NCBI RefSeq assembly: GCF_001570605.1
Contig: NZ_BBXG01000011.1
Coordinates: 124,001-188,000, forward strand
Length of the DNA: 64,000 nt
Origin: Herbidospora cretacea
GTDB lineage: Bacteria; Actinomycetota; Actinomycetes; Streptosporangiales; Streptosporangiaceae
Direction of reading: 5' to 3'
How positions within the stretch are numbered: position 1 is the stretch's first letter; every line of letters starts with the position of its first letter. The notes beneath the pieces were generated by a model. That model worked only from the letters and a program-made list of their open reading frames with translations, was not told where the DNA came from and ran no database searches. Both the position numbers and the translations under genes were made by a program. Positions 47,585 to 63,272 of this stretch are shown here, in pieces.

Positions 47585-48694
47585 ATGATCTCCCGAGCAC
47601 GGCGCCTCTCCATCCCCCTCGCCGGCGCGATGGTCGCGTTCGGCGTGGTGGGCGCATCCTCCGCCGCCACGGCCACGGCTCCCAGCGACGTGACCCAGAA
47701 GGCGGCCCCGACGACGGCCGCCGCGGCGGCGAACTTCTGGACCCCCGACCGGCTCCGCGCCGCCAAGGACCGGACCGAAGAACTGGGCAACGCGGTGAAG
47801 GGCTCGGGCAGCCCGAGCAACGCCGAGCCCGACGGCAAGGCCGGCGTGGTCCCGCCGATCGGCGGCGAGAAGAAGGCCACCCCGGCCACCAAGCAGGTCA
47901 ACCTGCCCAACACCGTCGGCCGGGTGTTCTTCACCCTGCCCGGCAAGAACCCGCTGGACCCGAAGAGCTGGAAGTACTGCTCCGGCACCTCGATCCAGGG
48001 CAAGTTCCGCAACGTCGTGGCCACCGCCGGGCACTGTGTGTACGACCCGGCCAGCAACCGCTTCTACGACAACTGGGTGTTCATCCCCTCCTACTGGGAC
48101 GGCACCCAGGCGTGGAACGGCAAGGCCCCCTACGGCATCTACCCGGCCACCTGGTACCAGGCGCACGACGACTTCGTGGTCAAGGAGGACTACGACTACG
48201 ACTACGCGTTCGTCAACGTCGCCTCCGGCTACAAGGCGAGCTGGGAGAAGGTCGACGGCAAGTACAAGCTCGTGAAGACCGCCGTCGGCCGCCTCGGTGA
48301 CAACGTCGGCGGCCAGGGCTTCACCTGGAACCGCAGCACCAAGACCAGCGTCTTCTCCTTCGGCTACCCGGCCGGCCCTCACCCGGACGGCGACCGTCCG
48401 TTCAGCGGCAAGACGATGAAGTGGTGCTACGGCCAGACCGCCTCCATGCCGGCCGCGCCGAAGTTCAACGTGCAGGAGCACGTCGGCATCAAGTGCGGCA
48501 TGACCGCCGGCGCCAGCGGCGGCCCGCTGCTGTGGAACTACAAGAGCAAGACCCGCACCGGTTACCTCTACGGCGTCAACAGCATCGCCTGGGACACCGA
48601 CGGCAACGACCGGTACGACCGGCTCTCCTCGCCCTACTTCAACAGCGAGACCTACGACGTCTACAAGGTCGCGGCGAACCGCTGGACCTCGTAA
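47585..48694 (+). CDS. Secreted trypsin-like serine peptidase, array member 1 (triad intact)
   Basis: A 369-residue exported protein with a Sec signal (cleavage about residue 31, SSAATA). Trypsin-fold elements: TAGHC with His150, DYAFVNV with Asp206, and TAGASGGP with Ser311, a complete triad with a normal oxyanion GxSGG. Two cysteine pairs are present (YCSG/GHC and WCYG/KCGM). GRLGDNVGGQGF and a DTDGNDRYD loop are shared with the other members. The N-terminal FWTPDRL stretch before the fold may be a propeptide. It probably cleaves proteins outside the cell. The spacer upstream contains only a partial GTGATCGCGTCA box. Ends with a 13-bp stem terminator. Confidence 0.92.
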   Translation: MISRARRLSIPLAGAMVAFGVVGASSAATATAPSDVTQKAAPTTAAAAANFWTPDRLRAAKDRTEELGNAVKGSGSPSNAEPDGKAGVVPPIGGEKKATPATKQVNLPNTVGRVFFTLPGKNPLDPKSWKYCSGTSIQGKFRNVVATAGHCVYDPASNRFYDNWVFIPSYWDGTQAWNGKAPYGIYPATWYQAHDDFVVKEDYDYDYAFVNVASGYKASWEKVDGKYKLVKTAVGRLGDNVGGQGFTWNRSTKTSVFSFGYPAGPHPDGDRPFSGKTMKWCYGQTASMPAAPKFNVQEHVGIKCGMTAGASGGPLLWNYKSKTRTGYLYGVNSIAWDTDGNDRYDRLSSPYFNSETYDVYKVAANRWTS

Positions 48695-48710
48695 CAGGCC
48701 ATGAGCACGG

Positions 48711-48741
48711 TGCCCGGGAGACGGTCGACGTCTCCCGGGCA
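48711..48741 (+). terminator. Hairpin terminator after array member 1
   Basis: TGCCCGGGAGACG/CGTCTCCCGGGCA, a perfect 13-bp stem, followed by TCTGCTTTT. Confidence 0.9.
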
Positions 48742-48917
48742 TCTGCTTTTCACACGGGCCTTAGGCGGAAGGCGATCTACTCGGACGCCACAGGGACCGG
48801 TTCGGTTCCCTCGAATTGATAACGAGACAGCCAAGAACCTGTGCCTGATCACTGGTGATCTGGAAAAATCACGCCTTACGATCGATACCTCCGTCCTCAG
48901 ACCCCCGAGAGGCCCTC

Positions 48918-50030
48918 ATGACCAGGCGGATCACCCTTGCCGCGGGCGGCGTCGCCGTCGCGCTGGGTGCCGCCGGGCTGCTCTCGGCGTGGAGCCCCGC
49001 GACCGCGCCGGCCACCGCCGCGCCGCGCACGGCCCCGCTGATGGAGGTCTCCGCCAAGGAGGCGGCCCCGCCCCCGGAGAAGCACTTCGGCAAGGGCGTG
49101 ATGGGCTACCCGCTCGCGGCGGTCGGCTCCGACATGCAGAAGGTCGCCGCCTACTGGACTCCCGCGCGGCTGAAGGAGGCCAGCACCTACGTCCCGGCCT
49201 CCAAGGCGTCGGCCGGAGCCCGGCAGGCCCCCTCGATGGCGGAGTTGTCCGGCGAGAAGGCCCTGCTCGGCGCTCCCGCCCAGGCCGCGGCGTCGCCGAC
49301 GCCGATGGTCGGCAAGGTGTTCTTCAAGCTGGGCGACAAGGAATACTGGTGTTCCGGCTCGGTCGTCCACTCGAAATACCGCAACCTGGTCGCCACGGCC
49401 GGCCACTGCGGCTGGTCGCTGGGCCAGAACAGGCCCGTCGAGAACTGGATCTTCATCCCGTCCTACGCGAACGGCTCCACCGACGCCGGCATCTACGTCG
49501 GCCACACCCTCTATCTCCACGAGGACTTCTCCGGCGCCGGCGACTACGACCGTGACTACGCCTTCGTCACCGTCTACCGGGGCTTCACCTGGAAGGGCGC
49601 CCAGCGGGTGCAGGGCGGCAAGATCGAGGACAAGGTCGGCGCGTTCCAGTTCGCCTCGACGAAGGGCCGCTCACGCCCGGTGTCGGTGTTCGGCTACCCG
49701 GCCGGCGCCCACCCCGACGGCACCCGCCCCTTCGACGGCCAGACCGTCAAGCCCTGTTCCGGCACGACCAGGGCCACCGCCGCCAGCGCCCCCACCTATC
49801 TCCTGGAGAACGGGGTGCTGCTCAACCCGTGCCCGTTCACGGCGGGCGCGAGCGGCGGCCCGTGGGTGCTCGGCTGGGATCCGGTGAAGAAGACCGGGTT
49901 CCTCAACGGCGTGACCAGCCTGACGTGGAACATCGACGCCGACGGCAAGCTCGACGCGGCCTCCTCGCCCTATTTCAACGCGATCACCGCGCGGGTCTAC
50001 CAGCAGGCGGCCAAGCAGGCGACGAACTAG
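48918..50030 (+). CDS. Secreted trypsin-like serine peptidase, array member 2 (triad intact, divergent)
   Basis: A 370-residue exported peptidase, the most divergent of the array. The signal peptide ends about residue 35 (Ala/Pro-rich). His163 is in TAGHC, Asp213 in DYAFVTV, Ser312 in TAGASGGP, so it should be active. The extracellular N-terminal region before the fold is longer (~120 residues). It lacks the GRLGDNVGGQG motif and the SGSIA C-terminus of the others, and its DxDG loop is shortened (DADGKLD). ATG 48918 has GAGAGG eight bases upstream. No Crp-type palindrome or terminator is obvious around it. Confidence 0.9.
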   Translation: MTRRITLAAGGVAVALGAAGLLSAWSPATAPATAAPRTAPLMEVSAKEAAPPPEKHFGKGVMGYPLAAVGSDMQKVAAYWTPARLKEASTYVPASKASAGARQAPSMAELSGEKALLGAPAQAAASPTPMVGKVFFKLGDKEYWCSGSVVHSKYRNLVATAGHCGWSLGQNRPVENWIFIPSYANGSTDAGIYVGHTLYLHEDFSGAGDYDRDYAFVTVYRGFTWKGAQRVQGGKIEDKVGAFQFASTKGRSRPVSVFGYPAGAHPDGTRPFDGQTVKPCSGTTRATAASAPTYLLENGVLLNPCPFTAGASGGPWVLGWDPVKKTGFLNGVTSLTWNIDADGKLDAASSPYFNAITARVYQQAAKQATN

Positions 50031-50121
50031 TCAGTGGTCTGTAAGTGCGGATAAAGCGAATGTAAAGCGCAGAAATCTACCTTCATCACAGCACACCTCA
50101 TTGATGAAGGAGCACCACTTC

Positions 50122-51315
50122 ATGCGATCCCGAGCGAAGCACCTCGCCCTCCTCGGCGCCACCGCCGGACTCCTCGGCGCCGGTCTGGCCGTCCCGACCG
50201 CCGCCAGCGCCGCCCCTGACGAGGCGTCCGACCCGCTGGCCGGCAGCGGCATCGCCGCCTGGAACGTCGTCGCCTTCTGGTACGGCCAGGCCAAGGCCAA
50301 CCTGAACGCCGCCACCCCCTACGACGTCGAGACCAAGGTCGTCGCCAAGCACCTGTCCAAGGGCGGCCCGTCGGCCGACGGCAAGCCCGGCCTGGTCCCG
50401 CCGATCGGCGGCGCGGGCGCCACCACGTCCAAGAACGTCAACCTGCCCCGCACCACCGGCAAGGTCTTCTTCCTGGACGACGACAAGAAGCCCCGCTGGT
50501 GCACCGCCACCTCGCTCCAGGCCAAGTACAAGAACCTGGTCGCCACCGCCGGGCACTGCGTCTACGACACCGAGTCCAACGCCGCCACGCTGAAGTACTG
50601 GGTGTTCGTCCCGGCCTACTACCAGGGCAAGACGCCCTACGGCATCTACGTCGGCAAGCAGGCCTTCACCCACTACGACTTCGACGTCTACGAGGACTTC
50701 GACCGCGACTACGCCTTCGTCACCGTCTACAACGGCCTGAAGGCCCCGCACGACGGCGGCCCGCTCGACGGCGACTGGAAGCAGGTCTCCAAGAGCGAGT
50801 GGGACAAGTACCGCTCGTACGGCACCTACCCGTGGATCGTCAGCAAGTACACGAAGAAGATCGGCTCCAAGTACTACATCTGGAAGTTCGTCGACGCGGG
50901 CCGTCTGGGTGACAACGTGGGCGGCCAGGGCTTCGCGTACAACCAGAAGAAGAACGTGAAGGACTACGTCTTCGGCTACCCGAGCGGGTCACACCCCGAC
51001 GGCAACCACGCCTACACGGGCCAGACCCAGAAGTGGTGCTACGGGACCACGTTCCCCGCCTCGGCGTCGGCCATCAAGGCCGAGGAGCTGATCGGCGTGA
51101 AGTGCAGCTTCACCGGTGAGGGCTCCTCGGGCTCGGCGTGGATGTACAAGTACAGCAACACCAGCCGCAAGGGCTACCTGAACGGCGTCACCGCCGCGGT
51201 CTCCGACACCGACGGCAACGACCGCATCGACGTCAGCCTCTCGCCCTACTTCGACGGCGAGACCTACGGCATCTACAAGCACGCGGCGAACCTGTGGTCG
51301 GGTTCGATCGCCTGA
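50122..51315 (+). CDS. Secreted trypsin-fold protein, array member 3 (oxyanion motif altered)
   Basis: A 397-residue exported protein; AAGGAG stands nine bases before ATG 50122. Signal peptide ends at ASAAPDEA. His145 (TAGHC) and Asp196 (DRDYAFV) are present, and a serine (Ser335) aligns with the nucleophile, but GxSGGP has become EGSSGSA, so oxyanion-hole geometry is doubtful. Both disulfide pairs are kept (WCTAT/GHC and WCYG/KCSF). From here on the members end LWSGSIA. It looks like an evolutionary step between the active members 1/2 and the degenerate members 4-9. The ~60-residue loop between the Asp strand and GRLGDNVGG is unique to it. Confidence 0.9.
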   Translation: MRSRAKHLALLGATAGLLGAGLAVPTAASAAPDEASDPLAGSGIAAWNVVAFWYGQAKANLNAATPYDVETKVVAKHLSKGGPSADGKPGLVPPIGGAGATTSKNVNLPRTTGKVFFLDDDKKPRWCTATSLQAKYKNLVATAGHCVYDTESNAATLKYWVFVPAYYQGKTPYGIYVGKQAFTHYDFDVYEDFDRDYAFVTVYNGLKAPHDGGPLDGDWKQVSKSEWDKYRSYGTYPWIVSKYTKKIGSKYYIWKFVDAGRLGDNVGGQGFAYNQKKNVKDYVFGYPSGSHPDGNHAYTGQTQKWCYGTTFPASASAIKAEELIGVKCSFTGEGSSGSAWMYKYSNTSRKGYLNGVTAAVSDTDGNDRIDVSLSPYFDGETYGIYKHAANLWSGSIA

Positions 51316-51331
51316 CCCCTCTGAAGTGCCC

Positions 51332-51359
51332 CGGGCCTGGCCGTTCACGGCCGGGCCCG
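51332..51359 (+). terminator. Hairpin terminator after array member 3
   Basis: CGGGCCTGGCCG-TTCA-CGGCCGGGCCCG (one T-G pair), then TTTTCATT. Confidence 0.88.
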
Positions 51360-51415
51360 TTTTCATTCCAAGAGGAATTAGACGTACATGGCCGGATTTC
51401 GGTGCCATGAATTTT

Positions 51416-51431
51416 TGTGATCTGCGTCACA
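51416..51431. promoter_or_regulatory. Crp/GlxR-type box before array member 4
   Basis: TGTGATCTGCGTCACA: perfect TGTGA-N6-TCACA, 150 bp before the start codon. Confidence 0.8.
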
Positions 51432-51580
51432 TCATGATCACGATTCGACCATCATCAGTCAAGTCCTCACCTGCGACAACGTGTGCACAAGAGCCCCAAA
51501 GGCCCGGTGAAGTCGCTTTGGACGTGCGCGACATCCCACGTACTGTCCTGACGGTCCCTTTACCAACGCATGGAGCACCC

Positions 51581-52780
51581 TTGAAGCGCACTCTCGCCAT
51601 CTCCGGTGTGGCCGCCGGCCTCCTGGCTTCCGCCCTCGTCACCCAGCCCGCCAACGCGGCCGGCGACGTGGCGAGCGACCCGCTGGCCAAGACCTCGCTC
51701 GCGGCCAGGAACGTCGTCGCCTACTGGTTCGCGAACAAGTACGCCAACCTCGTGGGCTCGACGCCCTACAACGCCGAAACGACCTTCAAGGTCAGCAAGC
51801 ACGTCTCCACCGGCGGCCCCGCCGCCGACGGGAAGGCTGGAACGGTCCCCGCCATCGGCGACGAGGCCAAGCCCGCCGGTTCGTCCAAGAACGTCAACCT
51901 CCCCCGCACCACCGGCAAGGTGTTCTTCCGCGGCGGCGACGGCAGGCCCCACTGGTGCACCGCCACCTCGCTGCAGTCGAAGTACAAGAACCTGGTCGCC
52001 ACCGCCGGCAGCTGCGTCTACGACACGGTGACCAACAAGGCCACGCTCGACTACTGGGCCTTCGTCCCCGGCTACTACCAGGGCAAGACCCCCTGGGGCA
52101 TCTACGTCGGCAAGACCGCCTACACCCACTACGACTTCGACGTCTACGAGGACGGCGACCGCAACTACGCGTTCGTCACCGTCTACAACGGCCTCAAGGC
52201 CCCGTCGTCGGGCCTGCCCGCCAAGGGCAGCGAGTTCGCCCGGTGGATGCGGACCGAGAACACCAAGGAAGTCACCAAGGCCGAGTGGGAGACCTACAGC
52301 AAGGCCATCCGCTCGCCCGGCCCGATCAAGGGCAAGTACTACGTCATCCGCTTCACCGACGCCGGCCGCCTCGGCGACAACGTCGGCGGCCAGGGCCTGG
52401 CCTACAACCAGAAGATCGGGACGAACGTCTACGTCTTCGGCTACCCGAGCGGCTCTCACCCGGACGGCAACCACGCCTTCACCGGCCACACGCTCAAGTG
52501 GAGCTACGGCAAGACGTTCAAGGCCAAGGCGTCGGCCGTGAAGGCCGAGGAGCTCATCGGCGTCAAGTCGTCGTTCACCGGCCAGGGCGCGCTGGGCTCG
52601 GCGTGGCTGAGCCAGTACAAGAGCACCCGCCGCCTGGGCTACCTCAACGGCGTGACGAGCGGCGTCTCCGACACCGACGGTAACAAGCGCATCGACACCT
52701 CGGTCTCCGCCTACTTCGACGGCGAGACCTACGGCGTCTACAAGTCGGCCGCGAACCTGTGGAGCGGCTCGATCGCGTAA
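51581..52780 (+). CDS. Secreted trypsin-fold pseudoprotease, array member 4 (S/N/A triad)
   Basis: A 399-residue exported protein starting at TTG 51581 with GGAG a few bases before; the in-phase TTG is required because the nearby ATG is in another frame. Signal peptide ends NAAG. All three catalytic residues are replaced: Ser144 for His (TAGSC), Asn195 for Asp (DRNYAFV), Ala337 for Ser (GQGALGS). The second cysteine pair is gone (WSYG, KSSF). The fold-defining sequence around these positions is otherwise kept, so the protein is likely stable but not a protease. A unique loop (about residues 205-260) precedes AGRLGDNVGGQG. Ca-loop-like DTDGNKRID is intact. Confidence 0.92.
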   Translation: MKRTLAISGVAAGLLASALVTQPANAAGDVASDPLAKTSLAARNVVAYWFANKYANLVGSTPYNAETTFKVSKHVSTGGPAADGKAGTVPAIGDEAKPAGSSKNVNLPRTTGKVFFRGGDGRPHWCTATSLQSKYKNLVATAGSCVYDTVTNKATLDYWAFVPGYYQGKTPWGIYVGKTAYTHYDFDVYEDGDRNYAFVTVYNGLKAPSSGLPAKGSEFARWMRTENTKEVTKAEWETYSKAIRSPGPIKGKYYVIRFTDAGRLGDNVGGQGLAYNQKIGTNVYVFGYPSGSHPDGNHAFTGHTLKWSYGKTFKAKASAVKAEELIGVKSSFTGQGALGSAWLSQYKSTRRLGYLNGVTSGVSDTDGNKRIDTSVSAYFDGETYGVYKSAANLWSGSIA

Positions 52781-52797
52781 GCACTTTCGAAGGTCAG

Positions 52798-52823
52798 GGG
52801 CCCGGTCGTTTTCGACCGGGCCC
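52798..52823 (+). terminator. Hairpin terminator after array member 4
   Basis: GGGCCCGGTCG-TTTT-CGACCGGGCCC, then TTTGCCG. Confidence 0.9.
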
Positions 52824-52855
52824 TTTGCCGTTCGCGCCTGGTTCCATTGATCTTG

Positions 52856-52871
52856 AGTGATTTACGTCACA
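52856..52871. promoter_or_regulatory. Crp/GlxR-type box before array member 5
   Basis: AGTGATTTACGTCACA: TGTGA-N6-TCACA with one mismatch, TA at the centre as in the GlxR consensus. Confidence 0.75.
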
Positions 52872-53101
52872 TTCCCAGACTCTTCACAGGAACCTGTGGT
52901 TTTCTACGCCGCCCAGCCGTCACATGCCGACGGCGGCAGAGCTGCGCTTCTACCCCTTCACTGTCATTGACATCTCTGTCAACAATTCGTCAGTGAAATC
53001 ACGGACCTGTTTCGGTCACTCAGAGCTACGGGCGAGCCTCAAGCAAACCTTCAGCCACAGAGGCCCCCGCTGTAAGGTCCCCTCATCCCTTTCCTGACGC
53101 A

Positions 53102-53144: not shown

Positions 53145-54413
53145 ATGAAGCGCACTCTCGCCCTCGGTGGCGTGGCGGCGGGCCTGCTGGCCTCCGCCCT
53201 CGTCACCCAGCCGGCATCCGCCGCCGGTGACGTCGCCAGCACCCCGCTGGCTTCGACCGGCATCGCGGCGCAGAACATCGTCGCCTACTGGGCCGCCAAC
53301 AAGGCTGCCAACCTCGTGGGCGCGACCCCCTACGACGTGGAGACCCAGGTCGTCGGGAAGCACGTCTCGACCGGTGGCCCGACCGCCGACACCAAGCCCG
53401 GGATCGTTCCCGCCATTGGTGACGAGAAGAAGGTCGCCAGCACCTCGAAGAACGTCAACCTGCCCAAGACCACGGGCAAGGTGTTCTTCACCGGCTCCGA
53501 CGGCGCGCCGCACTGGTGCACCGCCACCTCCGTCCAGGCCGCGTACAAGAACCTTGTCGCGACCGCCGGCCACTGCGTCTACGACGTCGTGTCCAACGCC
53601 GCCACGCTGAAGAACTGGGTGTTCGTCCCCGGTTACTACCAGGCGAAGACCCCGTGGGGCATCTACGTGGGTAAGCAGGCCTTCACCCACTACGACTTCG
53701 ACGTGTACGAGGACGGCGACCGCAACTACGCGTTCGTCACCGTGTACAACGGTCTGAAGGCTCCGCACGACGGCCCCGCCTTCGGCGGTCCGACCCCGAA
53801 GACGCCGAAGTGGTACGACACTTCCGGCGGCACCGGCTGGAACGACCTCGGTGGCTGGGCTGAGGTCACCAAGGAGGTGTACGACCAGTACTTCGGCTTC
53901 GACACCTTCATCGGTGACACGTACAAGTTCTTCGTGAACAAGCCCGGCACGAAGTGGCACGGATGGCACTACTTCGTCTGGAAGTTCGTGGACGCTGGCC
54001 GTCTCGGCGACAACGTCGGTGGCCAGGGCCTCGCGTACAACCAGAAGATCGGCCAGTCGGTCTACGTCTTCGGCTACCCGAGCGGCAAGCACCCGGACGG
54101 CAACCACGCCTACTCGGGCCACACGCTCAAGTGGAGCTACGGCAAGACCTTCGCGGCGAAGGCTTCGGACATCAAGGCCGAGGAGATCATCGGCATCAAG
54201 TCCTCCTTCACCGGTGAGGGCTCGCTGGGCTCCGCGTGGATCTCGCAGTACAAGAGCGCTCGTCGCCTTGGCTACCTGAACGGTGTGACGATCGGCGTCT
54301 CCGACACCGACAAGAACAACCGTATCGACACCTCGGTTTCCCCGTACTTCGACGGTGAGACCTTCGGCGTCTACAAGGCTGCTGCGAACCTGTGGAGCGG
54401 CTCGATCGCCTAA
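53145..54413 (+). CDS. Secreted trypsin-fold pseudoprotease, array member 5 (H/N/S)
   Basis: A 422-residue exported protein, the longest of the family. Signal peptide MKRTLALGGVAAGLLASALV with cleavage after SAAG-like residues. His143 is kept (TAGHC), Asp is Asn194 (DRNYAFV), and Ser360 aligns with the nucleophile but in GEGSLGS instead of GxSGG. The second cysteine pair is absent. An extended loop of ~80 residues rich in Trp, Tyr and Gly lies between VTVYNG and AGRLGDNVGG. Codons favour GGT/GCT/CGT more than the surrounding genes, which suggests high expression. Closest relative: member 7 in the N-terminal half. Confidence 0.92.
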   Translation: MKRTLALGGVAAGLLASALVTQPASAAGDVASTPLASTGIAAQNIVAYWAANKAANLVGATPYDVETQVVGKHVSTGGPTADTKPGIVPAIGDEKKVASTSKNVNLPKTTGKVFFTGSDGAPHWCTATSVQAAYKNLVATAGHCVYDVVSNAATLKNWVFVPGYYQAKTPWGIYVGKQAFTHYDFDVYEDGDRNYAFVTVYNGLKAPHDGPAFGGPTPKTPKWYDTSGGTGWNDLGGWAEVTKEVYDQYFGFDTFIGDTYKFFVNKPGTKWHGWHYFVWKFVDAGRLGDNVGGQGLAYNQKIGQSVYVFGYPSGKHPDGNHAYSGHTLKWSYGKTFAAKASDIKAEEIIGIKSSFTGEGSLGSAWISQYKSARRLGYLNGVTIGVSDTDKNNRIDTSVSPYFDGETFGVYKAAANLWSGSIA

Positions 54414-54514: not shown

Positions 54515-54530
54515 TGTGATTTACATCACA
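54515..54530. promoter_or_regulatory. Crp/GlxR-type box before array member 6
   Basis: TGTGATTTACATCACA, exact TGTGA-NNTANN-TCACA. Confidence 0.82.
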
Positions 54531-54806: not shown

Positions 54807-56036
54807 ATGAAGCGCACCCTCGCCCTCGGCGGTGTGGCGGCCGGCCTGCTGGCCTCCGCTCTCGTCACCCAGCCGGCCTCCGCGGCCGGCGACGTCGCCA
54901 GCGACCCGCTGGCCTCGACGGGCATCCAGGCCAAGAACATCGCGGCCTTCTGGCTGGCGGAGAACGCCGCCAACCTCGTCGCCGCGACGCCTTACGACGT
55001 GGAGACCACGGTCACCTCGAAGCACGTCTCGACCGGCGGCCCGACGGCCGACACCAAGCCTGGTGTCGTCCCCGCCATCGGTGACGAGAAGAAGACCACC
55101 AGCACGTCCAAGAACGTGAACCTGCCCAAGACCACGGGCAAGGTGTTCTTCTCCGACGGCTTCGAGAACAAGGGCACCTTCTGGCGTCCGAAGTGGGTCG
55201 CGAAGAACCCGCACTGGTGCACCGCCACCTCGGTTCAGTCGAACTACCGCAACCTGGTCGCCACCGCCGGTAGCTGTGTCTACAACACGGAGACCAACTC
55301 GGCGACCATGAACTACTGGGTGTTCGTCCCGGGTTACTACCAGGGCAAGACCCCGTGGGGCGTGTACGTCGGCAAGCAGGCCTTCACCCACTACGACTAC
55401 GACGTGTACGAGGACGGCGACCGCAACTACGCGTTCGTCACCGTGTACAACGGTCTCACCCTGAACGGCCCCGACCAGTCCGCTCCCGTGAGCAAGGTCG
55501 AGGTCACCGAGGCTGAGTACAAGACGTACTGGGAGAACAGCAACCGCCTGCTGCTGGCCGGCGCCGAGAAGGACGCCGCTGGCAAGTGGCACTTCTACAT
55601 CTGGAAGTTCAAGGACGCTGGCCGTCTCGGCGACAACGTCGGCGGCCAGGGCTTCGCGTACAACCAGAAGGTCGGCCAGAGCGTCTACGTCTTCGGCTAC
55701 CCGAGCGGCTCGCACCCGGACGGCAACCACGCCTACTCCGGCGCCACCCTCAAGTGGACCTACGGGAAGACCTTCGCCGCCTCGGCGTCGGCCATCAAGG
55801 CCGAAGAGCTGATCGGCGTCAAGTCCTCCTTCACCGGTGAGGGCGCCCTCGGTTCCGCGTGGATCTCGCAGTACAAGAGCGCTCGTCGTCTGGGCTACCT
55901 GAACGGCGTGACAATCGGCGTCTCCGACACCGACAAGAACAAGCGCTACGACACCTCGGTTTCCCCGTACTTCGACGGTGAGACCTTCGGCGTCTACAAG
56001 GCCGCCACGAACCTGTGGACCGGCTCGATCGCCTAA
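54807..56036 (+). CDS. Secreted trypsin-fold pseudoprotease, array member 6 (S/N/A)
   Basis: A 409-residue exported protein (signal MKRTLALGGVAAGLLASALV). Triad positions are Ser156, Asn207 and Ala347, so none is catalytic. The second cysteine pair is lost. It has an insertion before the first cysteine (SDGFENKGTFWRPKWVAKNP) shared with member 8, which adds about 14 residues. The variable loop (LTLNGPDQSAPVSKVEVTEA...) differs from all others. AGRLGDNVGGQGFAYNQKVG and the DTDKNKRYD loop are kept. With member 5 it may be the template of a duplicated two-gene unit (5-6 to 7-8). Confidence 0.92.
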   Translation: MKRTLALGGVAAGLLASALVTQPASAAGDVASDPLASTGIQAKNIAAFWLAENAANLVAATPYDVETTVTSKHVSTGGPTADTKPGVVPAIGDEKKTTSTSKNVNLPKTTGKVFFSDGFENKGTFWRPKWVAKNPHWCTATSVQSNYRNLVATAGSCVYNTETNSATMNYWVFVPGYYQGKTPWGVYVGKQAFTHYDYDVYEDGDRNYAFVTVYNGLTLNGPDQSAPVSKVEVTEAEYKTYWENSNRLLLAGAEKDAAGKWHFYIWKFKDAGRLGDNVGGQGFAYNQKVGQSVYVFGYPSGSHPDGNHAYSGATLKWTYGKTFAASASAIKAEELIGVKSSFTGEGALGSAWISQYKSARRLGYLNGVTIGVSDTDKNKRYDTSVSPYFDGETFGVYKAATNLWTGSIA

Positions 56037-56135: not shown

Positions 56136-56151
56136 CGTGATTCACATCACA
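56136..56151. promoter_or_regulatory. Crp/GlxR-type box before array member 7
   Basis: CGTGATTCACATCACA, TGTGA-N6-TCACA with one mismatch. Confidence 0.72.
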
Positions 56152-56424: not shown

Positions 56425-57600
56425 ATGAAGCGCACCCTCGCCCTCGGTGGCGTGGCGGCCGGCCTCCTCGCCTCCGCCCTCGTCACCCAGCCGGCTTCCG
56501 CGGCCGGCGACGTCGCCAGCTCCCCGCTGGCCAACAACGCCATCGCGGCGAAGAACATCGCCTCCTTCTGGTGGGCCGAGAACATGGCCGCCCTGAAGGG
56601 TGCGACCCCCTACGACGTGGAGACCCAGGTCGTCGGCAAGCACGTCTCGACCGGCGGCCCCACCGCCGACACCAAGCCGGGCATCGTGCCCGCGATCGGT
56701 GACGAGAAGAAGGTCGCCAGCACCTCGAAGAACGTCAACCTGCCCAAGACCACGGGCAAGGTGTTCTTCCGCGGCGCTGACGGCAAGTCCCACTGGTGCA
56801 CCGCCACCTCCGTCCAGGCCGCGTACAAGAACCTTGTCGCGACCGCCGGCCACTGCGTCTACGACGTCGAAGGCAACAAGGCGACCCTGGACCGCTGGGT
56901 CTTCATCCCGGGTTACTACCAGGGCAAGACCCCGTGGGGCATCTACGTCGGCAAGCAGGCCTTCACCCACTACGACTTCGACGTGTACGAGGACGGCGAC
57001 CGCAACTACGCGTTCGTCACCGTGTACAACGGCCTCAAGCTGCCCCACGGCGGCCTGAAGGACGTCACGCCGGAGAACATCGGCAGCTGGGTCGAGGTCT
57101 CGCCCGAGCTCGCCAAGCAGTACGAGCACTGGCTGAAGAAGTTCAAGGGCGGCAAGTGGTACGTCTGGAAGTTCGTGGACGCCGGTCGCCTGGGCGACAA
57201 CGTCGGCGGCCAGGGCCTCGCGTACAACCAGAAGGTCGGCCAGAACGTCTACGTCTTCGGCTACCCGAGCGGCTCGCACCCGGACGGCAACCACGCCTAC
57301 TCCGGCCACACCCTGAAGTGGACCTACGGCAAGACGTTCGCCGCCAAGGCCGCGGACATCAAGGCCGAAGAGATCATCGGCATCAAGTCCTCCTTCACCG
57401 GTGAGGGCGCCCTCGGTTCGGCGTGGCTCTCGCAGTACAAGAGCGCGCGTCGCCTCGGCTACCTGAACGGTGTGACGATCGGCGTCTCCGACACCGACAA
57501 GAACAACCGTTACGACACCTCGGTTTCCCCGTACTTCGACGGTGAGACCTTCGGCGTCTACAAGGCTGCTGCGAACCTGTGGAGCGGCTCGATCGCCTAA
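56425..57600 (+). CDS. Secreted trypsin-fold pseudoprotease, array member 7 (H/N/A)
   Basis: A 391-residue exported protein. His143 is kept, Asp is Asn194 and Ser is Ala329 (GEGALGS), so it cannot form an acyl-enzyme. Second cysteine pair absent. The N-terminal half (VETQVVGKHVSTGGPTADTK, VQAAYKNLVATAGHCVYDV) is almost that of member 5, while the C-terminal third is closest to members 5 and 6. The variable loop is shorter (about 45 residues; LPHGGLKDVTPENIGSW...). Ends LWSGSIA. Confidence 0.92.
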   Translation: MKRTLALGGVAAGLLASALVTQPASAAGDVASSPLANNAIAAKNIASFWWAENMAALKGATPYDVETQVVGKHVSTGGPTADTKPGIVPAIGDEKKVASTSKNVNLPKTTGKVFFRGADGKSHWCTATSVQAAYKNLVATAGHCVYDVEGNKATLDRWVFIPGYYQGKTPWGIYVGKQAFTHYDFDVYEDGDRNYAFVTVYNGLKLPHGGLKDVTPENIGSWVEVSPELAKQYEHWLKKFKGGKWYVWKFVDAGRLGDNVGGQGLAYNQKVGQNVYVFGYPSGSHPDGNHAYSGHTLKWTYGKTFAAKAADIKAEEIIGIKSSFTGEGALGSAWLSQYKSARRLGYLNGVTIGVSDTDKNNRYDTSVSPYFDGETFGVYKAAANLWSGSIA

Positions 57601-57680: not shown

Positions 57681-57696
57681 TGTGATTTACATCACA
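57681..57696. promoter_or_regulatory. Crp/GlxR-type box before array member 8
   Basis: TGTGATTTACATCACA, identical to the boxes of members 6 and 9. Confidence 0.82.
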
Positions 57697-57919
57697 TTTG
57701 TCAATTAATGTCCGCCTTCTTCACCAGCAGTTAACTCTTGCAGTCAATGTCGACACCCCGGCAGGCGTGGGCTTCAGCGGTCTCCGAGTGCCCTGACTTG
57801 CCGATCAACTGTGAGTCATCCGAATAACAGCAGCATCACGGGCCTCTGAGGTGCGCGAACACCACTTCAGACGTAAAAGATCACAGGGGTAACCTCCGGA
57901 ACATCCCTTTCCTGACGCA

Positions 57920-57939
57920 TGGGACGCAAGAGCGGCCCA
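57920..57939 (+). promoter_or_regulatory. Conserved 5' leader hairpin, member 8
   Basis: TGGGACGC-AAGA-GCGGCCCA with a one-base shorter loop; this indel shifts the frame relative to members 6 and 7. Confidence 0.62.
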
Positions 57940-57962
57940 CGTACAGACCAAGGAGTTCCCTC

Positions 57963-59180
57963 ATGAAGCGCACCCTCGCCCTCGGCGGTGTGGCGGCCGG
58001 CCTGCTGGCCTCCGCCCTCGTCACCCAGCCGGCCAACGCGGCCGGCGACGTCGCCAGCGACCCGCTGGCCACGACCGGCATCGCGGCCAAGAACGTCGCG
58101 GCGCTGTGGCTGACCGAGAACGCCGCCAACCTGATCGCGGCCACGCCCTACGACGTGGAGACCACGGTCACCTCCAAGCACGTCTCGACCGGCGGCCCGA
58201 CGGCCGACACCAAGCCGGGTGTCGTCCCCGCCATCGGTGACGAGAAGGCCACCACGAGCACGTCGAAGAACGTCAACCTGCCCAAGACCACGGGCAAGGT
58301 GTTCTTCTCCGACGGGTTCGAGAACAAGGGCACCAAGTACTGGCCGAAGTGGGTCGCGAAGAACCCGCACTGGTGCACCGCCACCTCGGTTCAGTCGAAC
58401 TACCGCAACCTCGTCGCCACCGCCGGCAGCTGCGTCTACAACACCGAGACCAACAGCGCCACGATGCAGAACTGGGTGTTCGTCCCGGGTTACTACCAGG
58501 GCAAGACCCCGTGGGGCATCTACGTCGGCAAGCAGGCCTTCACCCACTACGACTACGACGTGTACGAGGACGGCGACCGCAACTACGCGTTCGTCACCGT
58601 GTACAACGGCCTCCAGCTCGGCACGGCCGCGCCCGTCGAGATCACCCAGGCCGAGTACGACACGTACCAGAAGAACGGTGGCGGCTTCACCACTCGCCGG
58701 AAGTACGAGAAGGTCGACGGCAAGTGGGTCACCAAGTACTACGCGTGGAAGTTCAAGGACGCCGGTCGCCTCGGTGACAACGTCGGCGGCCAGGGCTTCG
58801 CGTACAACCAGAAGGTCGGCCAGAGCGTCTTCGTGTTCGGCTACCCGAGCGGCTCGCACCCGGACGGCAACGCCGCCTACTCCGGCAAGACCCTCAAGTG
58901 GAGCTACGGCAAGACCTTCGGCGCCAAGGCCTCGGCCATCAAGGCCGAGGAGCTCGTCGGCGTGAAGTCCTCGTTCACCGGTGAGGGCTCGCTCGGCTCC
59001 GCGTGGATCGCGCAGTACAAGAACGCCCGTCGTCTGGGCTACCTGAACGGCGTGACCATCGGCGTCTCCGACACCGACGGCAACAAGCGCTACGACACCT
59101 CGGTCTCCGCCTACTTCGACGGCGAGACCTACGGCGTCTACAAGGCCGCCGCGAACCTGTGGACCGGTTCGATCGCGTAG
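57963..59180 (+). CDS. Secreted trypsin-fold pseudoprotease, array member 8 (S/N/S)
   Basis: A 405-residue exported protein. Ser156 replaces His, Asn207 replaces Asp; Ser343 aligns with the nucleophile but lies in GEGSLGS without the GG needed for the oxyanion hole. Shares with member 6 the 14-residue insert before the first cysteine and TAGSCVYNTETNSATM. The variable loop (APVEITQAEYDTYQKNGGGF...) is close to that of member 9. The Ca-loop-like DTDGNKRYD is complete. Ends LWTGSIA. Confidence 0.92.
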   Translation: MKRTLALGGVAAGLLASALVTQPANAAGDVASDPLATTGIAAKNVAALWLTENAANLIAATPYDVETTVTSKHVSTGGPTADTKPGVVPAIGDEKATTSTSKNVNLPKTTGKVFFSDGFENKGTKYWPKWVAKNPHWCTATSVQSNYRNLVATAGSCVYNTETNSATMQNWVFVPGYYQGKTPWGIYVGKQAFTHYDYDVYEDGDRNYAFVTVYNGLQLGTAAPVEITQAEYDTYQKNGGGFTTRRKYEKVDGKWVTKYYAWKFKDAGRLGDNVGGQGFAYNQKVGQSVFVFGYPSGSHPDGNAAYSGKTLKWSYGKTFGAKASAIKAEELVGVKSSFTGEGSLGSAWIAQYKNARRLGYLNGVTIGVSDTDGNKRYDTSVSAYFDGETYGVYKAAANLWTGSIA

Positions 59181-59195
59181 TCACGCGCCCGACGG

Positions 59196-59219
59196 AAGGC
59201 CCGGCTCCGGCCGGGCCTT
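59196..59219 (+). terminator. Hairpin terminator after array member 8
   Basis: AAGGCCCGGC-TCCG-GCCGGGCCTT, then TTCGTTTG. Confidence 0.9.
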
Positions 59220-59286
59220 TTCGTTTGCCCGTTCCAACGGGGTCATCTTGGACGGATGAGCCTCCGGATCGGTGCCATCAGACCAA

Positions 59287-59302
59287 TGTGATTTACATCA
59301 CA
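59287..59302. promoter_or_regulatory. Crp/GlxR-type box before array member 9
   Basis: TGTGATTTACATCACA, exact consensus. Confidence 0.82.
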
Positions 59303-59459
59303 TCATCACCTGTTGATAACAACCCGACCACGGCTCTGACCTCGGGTCTGACAGGTTACGAAAAGATCACGGCGTTTGAGGGGTTTCGGTCGCCCTCCGA
59401 TGAGCTACCCGGTGTGACGAACAGCCATGTAAGTTCCGGACTGCCCCTTTACTGACGCA

Positions 59460-59480
59460 TGGGACGCAAGAGGCGCCCCA
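59460..59480 (+). promoter_or_regulatory. Conserved 5' leader hairpin, member 9
   Basis: TGGGACGC-AAGAG-GCGCCCCA, one internal mismatch. Confidence 0.65.
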
Positions 59481-59506
59481 CGACAGAGCAAGAGGAGTTC
59501 CCCCTT

Positions 59507-60718
59507 ATGAAGCGCACTCTCGCCCTCGGTGGTGTGGCAGCCGGTCTGCTGGCTTCCGCTCTCGTCACCCAGCCGGCCTCCGCCGCCGGCGACGTCGCCT
59601 CCGACCCCTTGGCGACCACGGGCATCGCGGCCAAGAACATCGCGGCCCTCTGGTTGACGGAAGGCGCGGCGAACCTCATCAACGCGCTGCCGTACAACGT
59701 GGAGACCACGACCCCGGCCAAGCACGTCTCGACCGGCGGCCCCTCCGCCGACACCAAGCCGGGCATCGTCCCCGCCATCGGTGACGAGAAGAAGACCACG
59801 AGCACCTCGAAGAACATCAACCTGCCCAAGACCACGGGCAAGGTGTTCTTCGCCGACGGCGCCAAGAAGGACCCGGTGACCGGCAAGGTCGTCGCGGTCA
59901 ACCCCCGCTGGTGCACCGCGACCTCCATCCAGTCGACCTACCGCAACCTGGTCGCCACCGCCGGTAGCTGTGTCTACGACACGGAGACCAACTCGGCGAC
60001 CATGAACTACTGGGTGTTCGTCCCGGGTTACTACCAGGGCAAGACCCCGTGGGGCGTGTACGTCGGCAAGCAGGCCTTCACGCACTACGACTACGACGTG
60101 TACGAGGACGGCGACCGCAACTACGCGTTCGTCAACGTGTACAACGGCATCGCGCTCGGCCAGGGTGCGCCCGCCGAGATCACCGAGGCCGAGTACAACA
60201 CGTACCAGAAGAACGGCGGCGGCTTCCTCACCCGTAAGAAGACCGAGAAGGTCAACGGCAAGGACGTCACCAAGTACTTCGTGTGGAAGTTCAAGGACGC
60301 CGGTCGCCTGGGCGACAACGTCGGTGGCCAGGGCTTCGCGTACAACCAGAAGGTCGGCCAGAACGTCTACGTGTTCGGTTACCCGAGCGGTTCGCACCCG
60401 GACGGCAACCAGGCTTACACCGGTAAGACCCTCAAGTGGAGCTACGGCAAGACGTTCGCCGCCAAGGCTGCCGCCATCAAGGCTGAGGAGATCATCGGCG
60501 TCAAGTCCTCGTTCACCGGCCAGGGCTCGCTGGGTTCGGCGTGGCTGGCGCAGTACAAGAACACCCGCCGCCTCGGCTACCTGAACGGCGTGACCATCGG
60601 TGTCTCCGACACCGACAAGAACAACCGCATCGACACCTCGCTGTCGGCCTACTTCGACGGCGAGACCTACGGCGTCTACAAGGCCGCCGCGAACCTGTGG
60701 ACCGGCTCGATCGCCTAG
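59507..60718 (+). CDS. Secreted trypsin-fold pseudoprotease, array member 9 (S/N/S)
   Basis: A 403-residue exported protein. Ser154 for His, Asn205 for Asp, Ser341 in GQGSLGS. The second cysteine pair is lost. The insert before the first cysteine (ADGAKKDPVTGKVVAVNP) is different from that of members 6 and 8, but the variable loop (EITEAEYNTYQKNGGGF...) is nearly that of member 8, a mosaic pattern. DTDKNNRID and the LWTGSIA end are kept. ATG 59507 follows AGAGGAGTTCCCCCTT. Confidence 0.92.
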   Translation: MKRTLALGGVAAGLLASALVTQPASAAGDVASDPLATTGIAAKNIAALWLTEGAANLINALPYNVETTTPAKHVSTGGPSADTKPGIVPAIGDEKKTTSTSKNINLPKTTGKVFFADGAKKDPVTGKVVAVNPRWCTATSIQSTYRNLVATAGSCVYDTETNSATMNYWVFVPGYYQGKTPWGVYVGKQAFTHYDYDVYEDGDRNYAFVNVYNGIALGQGAPAEITEAEYNTYQKNGGGFLTRKKTEKVNGKDVTKYFVWKFKDAGRLGDNVGGQGFAYNQKVGQNVYVFGYPSGSHPDGNQAYTGKTLKWSYGKTFAAKAAAIKAEEIIGVKSSFTGQGSLGSAWLAQYKNTRRLGYLNGVTIGVSDTDKNNRIDTSLSAYFDGETYGVYKAAANLWTGSIA

Positions 60719-60741
60719 TCGATCCGCGTGACAGCTTGACG

Positions 60742-60771
60742 AAAAAGCCCGGCAATCCAGCCGGGCTTTTT
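60742..60771 (+). terminator. Hairpin terminator after array member 9
   Basis: AAAAAGCCCGGC-AATCCA-GCCGGGCTTTTT, then CTCGTTTTA: a classical intrinsic terminator. Confidence 0.93.
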
Positions 60772-60841
60772 CTCGTTTTATCAATGCTTTAGAGCACTTG
60801 CCGGAGTGATGTAAGTTTCTGGCTATCCCCTTTCTGGCGAA

Positions 60842-60862
60842 TGAGACGCAAGAGGCGTCTCA
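60842..60862 (+). promoter_or_regulatory. Conserved 5' leader hairpin, member 10 (perfect stem)
   Basis: TGAGACGC-AAGAG-GCGTCTCA is a perfect 8-bp stem. Relative to members 6-9 the third pair changed from G-C to A-T, a compensatory change. A TG-TAAGTT extended -10 lies at 60812-60817. No Crp-type box in this gap. Confidence 0.75.
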
Positions 60863-60888
60863 CGTCAAGTGCAAGGAGCGAACCCCCT

Positions 60889-61974
60889 GTGAAGCGCATC
60901 CTCCTTCCCGTCGGCGTGGCCGGCCTCGTCGCCGCCTCGTTAGCGGTCCCCGCGCACGCCGGCCCCAAGGTGGGCACCTCGGCCAAGCTGTCGACCCCCG
61001 CCGCGGCCGCCGACACCCTGGCGTTCTGGACCGAGGACGGCGGCAAGAACCTGAAGGCCGCCGCCCCCTACGGCCTGGAGCACGCCAGAGTCCCCAAGCA
61101 CGTCTCCACCGGCGGCCCGGCCGCCGACGGCAAGCCCGGCCTGGTGCCCGCCATCGGTGACGAGGCCAAGCCCACGACGACGACCAAGAACGTCAACCTG
61201 CCCAAGAGCACCGGCCGCGTGTTCTTCGTGCTCGGCGACGGCCTCTACTCCTGCTCGGCGTCGTCGATCCAGTCGGCGTACAAGAACCTGGTGGCCACCG
61301 CCGGCCACTGCGCCTACGACATCGAGAGCAACGCCAGCGTCGTCGGCAAGTGGGTCTTCATCCCCGGCTACTACCAGGGCAAGGCTCCCTGGGGCATCTA
61401 CGTCGGCAAGACCGCCTACACCCACTACGACTTCAGCGTGTACGAGGACGTCGACCGCGACTACGCGTTCGTCACCGTCTACAACGGCATCACGCCGGCC
61501 GACGGCAAGTGGAAGGACGTCGGCCGCCTGGGCGACAACGTCGGCGGGCAGGGGTTCGCCTACAACCAGAAGGTCGGCGCCCCGACCTTCGTCTTCGGCT
61601 ACCCGACCGCGGCCCACGGCGACGGCGACTACGCGTACACCGGCGGGACCCTGAAGTGGTGCTACGGCAAGCCGGTCTACCCCGTGGTCGAGAAGACCGT
61701 GAAGGCCGAGGAGCACATGGCCCTCAAGTGCTCGATGACCGGCGGCGCCTCCGGCGGCCCGTGGATCGTCAAGTACAGCAGCAACGCGCGCAAGGGCTAC
61801 ATCAACGGCGTGACCAGCCTCGGCGGCGACACCGACGGCAACCACCGCAGCGACCTGATCACCTCGCCCTACTTCGACGGCGAGACCTACTCGGTCTACA
61901 AGGCCGCGGCCCCGCTGTGGTCGGGCTCGATCGTCAAGAAGGACGGCACCCTCGGCATCAGCGAGGTTAAGTAA
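60889..61974 (+). CDS. Secreted trypsin-like serine peptidase, array member 10 (triad intact)
   Basis: A 361-residue exported peptidase from GTG 60889, with AAGGAG before it. Signal peptide ends PAHAG. His140 (TAGHC), Asp191 (DRDYAFV) and Ser288 (GGASGGP) form a complete triad, and both cysteine pairs are present. The variable loop is nearly absent (NGITPADGKWKDVGRLGD), making this the shortest fold core of the array. The Ca-loop-like DTDGNHRSD is kept and the end is SGSIVKKDGTLG. Likely an active extracellular protease that could be the partner or target-competitor of the inactive relatives. No hairpin terminator follows; the next Crp-type box begins six bases after the stop. Confidence 0.92.
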   Translation: MKRILLPVGVAGLVAASLAVPAHAGPKVGTSAKLSTPAAAADTLAFWTEDGGKNLKAAAPYGLEHARVPKHVSTGGPAADGKPGLVPAIGDEAKPTTTTKNVNLPKSTGRVFFVLGDGLYSCSASSIQSAYKNLVATAGHCAYDIESNASVVGKWVFIPGYYQGKAPWGIYVGKTAYTHYDFSVYEDVDRDYAFVTVYNGITPADGKWKDVGRLGDNVGGQGFAYNQKVGAPTFVFGYPTAAHGDGDYAYTGGTLKWCYGKPVYPVVEKTVKAEEHMALKCSMTGGASGGPWIVKYSSNARKGYINGVTSLGGDTDGNHRSDLITSPYFDGETYSVYKAAAPLWSGSIVKKDGTLGISEVK

Positions 61975-61980
61975 TAGCTG

Positions 61981-61996
61981 TGTGACTTAGGTCACA
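61981..61996. promoter_or_regulatory. Crp/GlxR-type box before array member 11
   Basis: TGTGACTTAGGTCACA, exact TGTGA-NNTANN-TCACA, 84 bp before the GTG start. Confidence 0.82.
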
Positions 61997-62080
61997 TTCT
62001 CTCTCCTCCCGTTTGTTTTCGGTCTCACGGTTAGTCACCTGGAAGATCCAATCCGCAACGGGAGGAAAGGGAGGGTCAAC

Positions 62081-63223
62081 GTGGACACTCGAGCACGCCT
62101 GAGCCTCGTGACCGCCGGCATCGCCGGATCCGCCGTACTGGTGGCATTACCGGCCAGCGCCGCCTCGCCCGCCGACGGACCCACGGTCTCCGTGGCAGAC
62201 GCCGACAACATCGCGGGCTTCTGGTTCCGCAGCAACAACAAGGCGCTGAAGGCGGCCACCCAGTGGGGCCCCGACGCCGAGACGGTCGCCAAGGTGGCCA
62301 AGCTGTCCTCGAAGGGCGGTCCCTCGGCCGACGGCAAGGCCGGCACCGTCTCTCCGACCGGACCGGGCGGTCAGGCCGGCACCTCGAAGAACATCAACAT
62401 CCCCAAGACGCTGGGCAAGGTCTTCTTCCAGAAGAACGGCAAGACCTACTGGTGCTCGGCGACCTCCATCCAGGCGAAGTACAAGAACCTGGTGGCCACC
62501 GCCGGCCACTGCGTCTTCGACACCGACGACAACGACCACATGCTCAACAGGTGGATCTTCGTCCCGGGCTACTACCAGGGCAAGGCCCCCTTCGGCGTGT
62601 ACGTCGCCAAGCAGGGCTTCACCCACTACGACTTCGACGTCTACGAGGACTACGACCGCGACTACGCGTTCGTCACCGTCTACAACGGCGTCAAGTTCGA
62701 GGCGACGAAGTCCGTCTCCGAGAAGACGTACAAGGGTCACGGCGGCGAGCGGTGGCGCGACAAGGGCAAGTGGTGGATCCTCACCGTCAAGGACGCCGGC
62801 CGCCTCGGCGACAACGTCGGCGGCCAGGGCCTGGCCTACAACCAGAAGGTGGGCGCCGGCGCGGTGTACGCCTTCGGCTACCCCGCGGCCCGTCACCCCG
62901 ACGGCAACAAGGCGTTCACCGGGGTCACCCCCAAGTGGTGCTACGGCAAGCCCAACCGTGAGGTCACGGACGCGTCCCTCAAGATCGAGGAGCAGATCGC
63001 GATCACCTGCTCGATGACGCCGGGCGCCGACGGCGGCCCGTGGCTGCTGAAGTACAGCAACGCCCGCCGCCTCGGTTACGTCAACGGCGTGACCAGCGCC
63101 TTCGCCGACTCGAACGGCAACGACCGCATCGACAAGATCACCTCGCCCTACTTCGACGGCGAGACGTACGACGTCTACAAGGCCGCGGCCAACAACTGGT
63201 CCGGCAGCATCGTCAAGAAGTAA
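62081..63223 (+). CDS. Secreted trypsin-fold protein, array member 11 (Ser-to-Asp at nucleophile)
   Basis: A 380-residue exported protein from GTG 62081 (GGGAGGG upstream). His143 (TAGHC) and Asp194 (DRDYAFV) are normal and both cysteine pairs are kept, but the nucleophile position is Asp317 in a perfectly preserved frame GADGGP. This is a single-site inactivation distinct from the broad decay in members 4-9. The variable loop is ~35 residues (FEATKSVSEKTYKGHGG...). Ca-loop-like DSNGNDRID is present. Ends NNWSGSIVKK. A strong terminator follows. Confidence 0.92.
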   Translation: MDTRARLSLVTAGIAGSAVLVALPASAASPADGPTVSVADADNIAGFWFRSNNKALKAATQWGPDAETVAKVAKLSSKGGPSADGKAGTVSPTGPGGQAGTSKNINIPKTLGKVFFQKNGKTYWCSATSIQAKYKNLVATAGHCVFDTDDNDHMLNRWIFVPGYYQGKAPFGVYVAKQGFTHYDFDVYEDYDRDYAFVTVYNGVKFEATKSVSEKTYKGHGGERWRDKGKWWILTVKDAGRLGDNVGGQGLAYNQKVGAGAVYAFGYPAARHPDGNKAFTGVTPKWCYGKPNREVTDASLKIEEQIAITCSMTPGADGGPWLLKYSNARRLGYVNGVTSAFADSNGNDRIDKITSPYFDGETYDVYKAAANNWSGSIVKK

Positions 63224-63267: not shown

Positions 63268-63272
63268 TTTCG

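What the first reader, a model, noticed from the sequence alone, without database searches (positions are those of the whole stretch)
47585..63223. Eleven tandem secreted trypsin-fold paralogues, most with a lost catalytic triad
Eleven consecutive same-strand genes, with no foreign gene between them, encode exported proteins of 361-422 residues that share one fold. Triad residues (His/Asp/Ser positions), by member: 1 H150/D206/S311; 2 H163/D213/S312; 3 H145/D196/S335; 4 S144/N195/A337; 5 H143/N194/S360; 6 S156/N207/A347; 7 H143/N194/A329; 8 S156/N207/S343; 9 S154/N205/S341; 10 H140/D191/S288; 11 H143/D194/D317. Only 1, 2 and 10 have a normal triad plus GxSGG. Tandem amplification of inactive but well-preserved proteins, each with its own promoter region, argues that the inactive forms are selected for: as decoys, inhibitors, binding proteins or matrix components. 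I know of no described system with this layout.
Basis: partly seen in the sequence, partly recalled or inferred. Interest (0 to 1): 0.93.

Follow-up and report, generated by a model that had tools for sequence, protein, structure and literature searches.

The report
Tandem secreted dead-protease array
Soil actinomycetes of one family carry rows of genes for exported proteins built like digestive proteases, most of which have lost the cutting residue yet are carefully preserved and share a regulatory DNA site that their intact neighbours lack, which suggests the fold has been reused for binding rather than cutting.

Summary
The eleven tandem trypsin-fold genes with Sec-like N-termini are real. 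Member 3 has an intact triad; members 4-9 all carry Leu at the Ser195 position plus D102N; member 11 is Ser195Asp.

They are not decaying. All 7 genomes of the genus (Herbidospora) searched hold the array, and median orthologue omega is 0.02-0.07 for every member, intact or not. Arrays occur in other genera of the family. In 366 distinct members, position 195 is S 157, L 101, D 82, I 17, other 9.

New here: a CRP-type palindrome stands upstream of members 4-9 and 11 and of no intact member. Genome-wide, 7 of 12 strict sites precede nucleophile-less genes of this family. Across genera it precedes 98 of 117 Leu/Ile, 45 of 82 Asp and 22 of 153 Ser members; this follows lineages. The same lineages carry a longer insert.

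Best reading: a repurposed, separately regulated, non-catalytic binding family, working like UmbA of umbrella toxins but not UmbA. Ligand unknown.

The parts
47585..48694 (+). m1, exported trypsin-fold protein, intact H150/D206/S311
   Evidence: Pfam Trypsin 21.6 bits, over its cut-off
48918..50030 (+). m2, intact H163/D213/S312
   Evidence: Pfam Trypsin 21.7 bits, over its cut-off
50122..51315 (+). m3, intact H145/D196/S336 in a GSSGSAW motif; insert of 54 aa
   Evidence: D102N in 4 of 7 genomes of the genus
51581..52780 (+). m4, pseudoprotease S144/N195/L338 (TTG start)
   Evidence: median omega 0.029
53145..54413 (+). m5, pseudoprotease H143/N194/L361; insert of 81 aa
   Evidence: median omega 0.068
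54807..56036 (+). m6, pseudoprotease S156/N207/L348
   Evidence: median omega 0.041
56425..57600 (+). m7, pseudoprotease H143/N194/L330; modelled (mean pLDDT 85.3)
   Evidence: median omega 0.060
57963..59180 (+). m8, pseudoprotease S156/N207/L344
   Evidence: median omega 0.050
59507..60718 (+). m9, pseudoprotease S154/N205/L342
   Evidence: median omega 0.063
60889..61974 (+). m10, intact H140/D191/S288 (GTG start)
   Evidence: median omega 0.042
62081..63223 (+). m11, Ser195Asp member H143/D194/D317 (GTG start); modelled (mean pLDDT 84.8)
   Evidence: median omega 0.019, the lowest of the eleven
51417..51430 (+). CRP-type palindrome upstream of m4
52857..52870 (+). CRP-type palindrome upstream of m5
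54516..54529 (+). CRP-type palindrome upstream of m6
56137..56150 (+). CRP-type palindrome upstream of m7
57682..57695 (+). CRP-type palindrome upstream of m8
59288..59301 (+). CRP-type palindrome upstream of m9
61982..61995 (+). CRP-type palindrome upstream of m11
52801..52821 (+). GC-rich hairpin after m4, probable terminator; like ones start at 54438, 56061, 57625, 59200 and 60748
   Evidence: pattern match only
57034..57183 (+). variable insert of m7 (residues 204-253), between the Asp102 strand and GRLGDN

Best explanation
A family of exported S1-fold (Anisep/AL20-like) proteases in Streptosporangiaceae has been repurposed, probably more than once, into non-catalytic extracellular proteins. 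The nucleophile was replaced by Leu/Ile, which I expect to plug the catalytic site, or by Asp with the His-Asp dyad kept. These lineages carry a longer, variable insert after the Asp102 strand and a CRP/cAMP-type promoter element that nearly all canonical GxSGG paralogues lack, and in Herbidospora the Leu members were amplified in tandem. I think the products work as docking or binding proteins (cleft or insert as the binding surface, in the manner of UmbA of umbrella toxins), made together under cAMP-CRP control outside the cell. SHOWN by sequence: triad loss, conservation, insert lengths, site distribution, tandem copies. INFERRED: lack of proteolysis, secretion, the binding role, the regulator, and that the insert and the site were gained rather than lost in the others. 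UNKNOWN: the ligand.
Against: No expression, secretion or activity data. Site and insert follow lineages: on independent pairs the site-versus-loss association is not significant (5 starred pairs, sign test median p 1). Of 45 GS-type members with Ser195, 21 also have the site, and GS-type inserts are long too (42-157 aa, 37 parsed), so both mark the derived lineages rather than inactivation itself. The m10 clade lies among the derived lineages on the tree but m10 lacks the site and has a short insert. 37 of 82 Asp and 19 of 117 Leu/Ile members lack the site. Repeated change at 195 could also reflect exchange between tandem paralogues. The codon index is rough: intact members score as high (m1, m3, m10 0.83-0.88) and the ribosomal reference genes themselves only 0.64-0.85.
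Confidence: 0.55

Rival explanations
1. The inactive members are decoys or regulators of the active paralogues m1, m2, m3 and m10: they soak up inhibitors or substrates, or bind the active enzymes.
For: Inactive and active members are neighbours in the arrays; the pro-region with its helix (39-59 in m7) is kept in an inactive member. MamO, a degenerate trypsin-like protein, activates MamE proteolysis (abstract).
Against: A bulky Leu/Ile at 195 is an odd choice for a decoy that must bind like the enzyme (inference). The inactive genes carry a regulatory site that canonical active genes nearly always lack. Two nucleophile-less paralogues sit on other contigs (C15, C16).
Confidence: 0.18
2. They are structural proteins of the cell surface, sheath or extracellular matrix, amplified for dosage.
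For: Multiple codon-adapted copies, Sec-like N-termini, and CRP-type sites shared with a CAP-domain-like and a lytic-transglycosylase-like exported protein.
Against: Inserts differ strongly between paralogues yet are kept between species for m3, m4 and m9, which fits distinct roles better than dosage. No wall-anchor or repeat family over cut-off was found in the 10 of 11 members scanned in each library.
Confidence: 0.17
3. The Asp195 class, and perhaps others, has a different catalytic or metal-binding activity using the His57-Asp102-Asp195 cluster.
For: H57 and D102 are kept in 82 of 82 Asp195 members; m11 has the lowest omega.
Against: No catalytic precedent is known to me. The Leu/Ile class lets 57 and 102 vary, so this cannot explain m4-m9. 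Metal binding was not testable here.
Confidence: 0.08
4. Ordinary decay of redundant duplicates.
For: Triad lost in most members; m3 has D102N in 4 of 7 genomes of the genus; fragments of family genes lie outside the arrays in G001, G002 and G003.
Against: Median omega 0.02-0.07, array in 7 of 7 genomes and no internal stop in array members, patterned substitutions.
Confidence: 0.02

Closest known systems
UmbA proteins of Streptomyces umbrella toxin particles (PMC11062931; abstract, passages and section 10 seen)
   Same: Secreted actinobacterial trypsin-like proteins without a complete triad, multicopy, diversified, used for binding rather than cutting.
   Different: UmbA has C-terminal lectin domains and partners UmbB and UmbC (ALF repeats). 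Here no lectin is seen, ALF repeats were not found in the genome, the variable part is an internal insert, and the nearest structures are Anisep/AL20.
Anisep (3wy8) and AL20 (3cp7), serine proteases
   Same: Closest solved structures by sequence and fold.
   Different: They have an intact nucleophile in GxSGGPW and no long insert; m4-m9 and m11 lack the nucleophile.
Scabies mite inactivated serine protease paralogues, SMIPP-S (passages of PMC7815109)
   Same: Multicopy family of excreted inactive serine-protease paralogues.
   Different: Animal proteins that interfere with host complement; relation of sequence or regulation was not tested.
MamO (PMC4794232; abstract and section list seen) and CspC (search listing only)
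   Same: Bacterial pseudoproteases with non-catalytic roles.
   Different: They serve magnetosome formation and spore germination; recalled as not forming such insert-bearing tandem arrays.
Staphylococcal Spl proteases (recalled; their structures appear)
   Same: Tandem secreted trypsin-fold paralogues in a bacterium (recalled).
   Different: Recalled as active proteases.

Membership tests
Active S1-type serine peptidases (Pfam Trypsin_2/Trypsin) | Trypsin/chymotrypsin fold | tested here: met
Active S1-type serine peptidases (Pfam Trypsin_2/Trypsin) | His57-Asp102-Ser195 triad | tested here: not met
   Met by m1, m2, m3, m10; not met by m4-m9 and m11
Active S1-type serine peptidases (Pfam Trypsin_2/Trypsin) | Score over the curated family cut-off | tested here: not met
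   Pfam: 10 of 11 scanned (m9 left out); m1 and m2 pass Trypsin, m3 and m4 have no hit, m5-m8 weak hits below cut-off; in the genome search m1 and m10 pass Trypsin_2. NCBIfam: 10 of 11 scanned (m8 left out), none over cut-off
UmbA of umbrella toxins | Trypsin-like domain lacking a complete triad | tested here: met
   m4-m9 and m11
UmbA of umbrella toxins | C-terminal lectin domain(s) | tested here: not met
   In m7 and m11 the trypsin fold runs to within 8 residues of the C-terminus; no lectin family in the 10 of 11 members scanned
UmbA of umbrella toxins | UmbC with ALF repeats in the genome | tested here: inconclusive
   PF03752: 0 in the window's draft genome (150 of 219 candidates scored); the same search rings in 8 of 148 genomes of the class, all in other families
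UmbA of umbrella toxins | Binding of the UmbB N-terminus in the cleft | not testable with these tools
   Needs proteins; UmbB was not searched for
cAMP-CRP regulon | Palindrome of CRP type upstream | tested here: met
   7 of 7 substituted window members; fits TGTGAN6TCACA and GTGN8CAC as given in passages of PMC4117774 and PMC10033298
cAMP-CRP regulon | CRP binding and cAMP-dependent expression | not tested
   No experiment; a Crp-like protein is encoded at G000:C9:386916

The most novel reading that the evidence does not exclude
Streptosporangiaceae maintain a cAMP-CRP-controlled repertoire of secreted binding proteins built on a dead protease scaffold: a constant plugged barrel presents a variable insert that differs between paralogues and, in some of them, is replaced between species. 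The set may serve to recognise competitors, surfaces or partners, a bacterial counterpart of diversified binding-protein arrays, evolved in parallel with Leu/Ile195 and Asp195 scaffolds.
Probability: 0.3. Interest if true: 0.88.

Novelty: new variant of a known kind. Interest (0 to 1): 0.72.

Why it matters
Bacterial pseudoproteases are known to me as scattered cases. Here is a family with many active and inactive members side by side in many named species, with the nucleophile replaced in more than one way, and a regulatory element that separates the derived from the canonical genes. That makes the question of how and why an enzyme fold is turned into a binding protein directly testable by comparing members, and gives a candidate regulon in which to look for the function. 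It also warns annotators that genes named trypsin-like protease in this family are often not proteases.

Tried and rejected
Decay of the array members: rejected; decayed-looking fragments exist outside the arrays. Membership in UmbA: considered because UmbA is the nearest functional analogue; rejected on the absence of lectin domains; ALF repeats were not found but that test is inconclusive. The first ALF search rang in no control genome, so it was repeated over the class to see whether it can ring. RNA families in 47000-63300: none at gathering threshold. Positive selection in the insert: not shown; pairwise estimates there are unreliable (saturation and numerical overflow); median omega in inserts of m3, m4, m6 and m9 is 0.05-0.08, while inserts of m5, m7 and m8 are partly replaced between species. 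A phylogenetically independent test of site versus nucleophile loss lacked power. A single clade for the Leu/Ile rows was rejected (p-AU 5.6e-4), but exchange between tandem paralogues could produce the same signal, and the groups were named after a first tree had been seen. Known domain in the insert: none over cut-off in seven insert-bearing relatives scanned; short motif repeats were noted. Papers on this family: none found in the held library of open-licence papers; of the papers listed there, more than the listing was seen only for MamO (outline with abstract) and the umbrella-toxin paper (abstract, passages, section 10).

Limits of the counts: the family search drew 150 genomes and scored at most 13 candidates each. 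Of 484 hit ORFs, 366 distinct rows reaching both ends of the triad were kept, the window's own included. 5 of 366 had under 300 bp upstream and were dropped. Insert length was parsed in 99 of 157 S, 90 of 118 L/I and 68 of 82 D rows. The 79-row tree left out A, G and N rows and three distant loci. The named-genome scan kept the best 80 of 233 confirmed stretches. Of the three CRP/FNR-like loci with scores over 65 bits only one was read. Three of the five non-family strict sites were not assigned to a gene.
Full report

THE TRIAD, CORRECTED. With the nucleophile aligned to solved enzymes, m1, m2, m3 and m10 have His, Asp and Ser. m4-m9 all have Leu at 195 and Asn at 102; m4, m6, m8 and m9 also have Ser at 57. 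m11 has Asp at 195 with His and Asp kept. m4-m9 also lack two of the four cysteines found in the other five.

NOT DECAY. Orthologues from 7 genomes of the genus give framework omega medians of 0.033, 0.063, 0.025, 0.029, 0.068, 0.041, 0.060, 0.050, 0.063, 0.042 and 0.019 for m1 to m11; omega = 1 is rejected in all 202 pairs (smallest likelihood-ratio statistic 23.9; pairs share lineages). Inactive members are as constrained as active ones. Orthologues were assigned by best BLAST match. 7 of 7 genomes have the array, with 9 to 11 members parsed per genome; G006 is split over two contigs. Fragments outside the arrays in G001, G002 and G003 look decayed.

BEYOND THE GENUS. At E <= 1e-60, 59 of 150 genomes of the GTDB family and 24 of 68 genera have relatives. 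At 1e-40, 11 of 296 genomes of the class do, all in this family. Named loci include Acrocarpospora, Planotetraspora, Microtetraspora, Microbispora, Sphaerimonospora and Nonomuraea. Where arrays were fetched, active members usually come first, then Leu/Ile members, then an active m10-like gene; Nonomuraea loci have Asp members instead. In 366 distinct members, position 195 is S 157, L 101, D 82, I 17, A 5, G 3, N 1. The Leu/Ile class tolerates change at 57 and 102; the Asp class keeps both in 82 of 82. Leu codons at 195 are CTC/CTG, and Ser codons of the GS type are TCG 32, TCC 12, TCA 2. The best 79-row tree needs at least 7 changes between nucleophile present and absent, and a single clade of all Leu/Ile/Asp rows is rejected; two of the Asp rows lie far from the rest. 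In the window's genome m4-m9 and the C15 paralogue form a group (starred, FastTree), so the tandem copies arose within or near this genus.

A REGULATORY SPLIT. GTGAN6TCAC occurs 7 times in the window (1.16 expected; 0 of 100 shuffles reach 7), each time upstream of a substituted member (m4-m9, m11) and never upstream of m1, m2, m3 or m10. In the alignment of the six m4-m9 upstream regions this block is among the best conserved, with a second block just before the genes. A strict form has 12 distinct places in the genome: five in this array, two before the dispersed Leu/Ile paralogues on C15 and C16, and five elsewhere; the reversed control gives none. Of the five others, one precedes a CAP-domain-like exported protein and one a lytic-transglycosylase-like protein (my reading of the translations); three were not assigned. 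Across genera the 420 bp upstream hold the palindrome in 98 of 117 Leu/Ile, 45 of 82 Asp, 22 of 153 Ser (21 of 45 GS type, 1 of 108 the rest, nearly all GxSGG) and 3 of 9 other members; the background rate is 0.075 per 420 bp. In Herbidospora the exceptions are three m6-like genes without it, one m3-like gene with a poor match, and two distant Asp genes without it. These rows are related by descent, and the independent-pairs test has too few pairs. I therefore claim an association with lineages, not with inactivation itself. The motif fits published CRP motifs (passages), and the genome has a Crp-like protein with the helix SRETVNKALADF (likeness to mycobacterial Crp is recalled).

THE INSERT. 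Between the Asp102 strand and GRLGDN the GxSGG members have 16-30 aa (61 of 61 parsed), GS-type members 42-157 (37 parsed), Leu/Ile members a median of 60 and Asp members of 157. In Herbidospora the inserts differ between paralogues; those of m3, m4 and m9 are kept between species, those of m5, m7 and m8 partly replaced. No Pfam family over cut-off was found in seven insert-bearing relatives.

HOW IT MOST LIKELY WORKS. The barrel is kept, the cutting residue is replaced in a patterned way, a longer insert is present, and the genes have their own promoter element. The economical reading is a change from cutting to binding. UmbA shows that a trypsin-like pseudoprotease in actinomycetes can bind a partner's extended N-terminus in its cleft without cutting it. 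Here no lectin is seen and ALF repeats were not found, so I do not file the family as UmbA, though it may work like it. Expression under cAMP-CRP is inferred from the site. The ligand is unknown.

WHAT WOULD CHANGE MY MIND. Activity of m4-m9, loss of the association in a broad and phylogenetically balanced sample, or absence of the proteins from the secretome.

Noticed in passing
G000:C11:57379 (L190), G000:C15:22311 (L189): Two of the five non-family strict CRP-type sites stand before exported-looking proteins (CAP-domain-like; lytic-transglycosylase-like), hinting at an extracellular CRP regulon.
   Followed up: partly
window 54807-57600 against L053, L054, L056: The order of the m6-like and m7-like genes in the window is the reverse of that in sister species, and G002 has two m7-like genes and no m5 by best match: the inactive block is reshuffled.
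   Followed up: partly
window 50122-51315 and its orthologues: m3 keeps Ser195 but has D102N in 4 of 7 Herbidospora genomes: perhaps inactivation in progress.
   Followed up: no
G001:C3:730051-730862, G002:C22:54761-54880, G003:C11:113260-113646: Short or broken matches to the family outside the arrays, probably decayed dispersed copies.
   Followed up: no
C-terminal part of most members, e.g. m7 residues 356-364: A conserved DTDGNxRxD-like stretch resembles a calcium-binding loop, in active and inactive members alike.
   Followed up: no
inserts of Asp195 members, e.g. Nonomuraea loci L156-L171: Recurring short motif of the type V/I-S/T-x-x-E-Y/W/F, up to 4 per insert (70 in 68 inserts against 1.5 in shuffles), as if the insert grew by repeats.
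   Followed up: partly
L061 (C15) and L062 (C16): Two dispersed nucleophile-less paralogues with inserts of about 169 and 183 aa, also with the palindrome.
   Followed up: partly
window 37007-39538: Family 9 glycoside hydrolase with cellulose-binding domain, upstream of the array.
   Followed up: no
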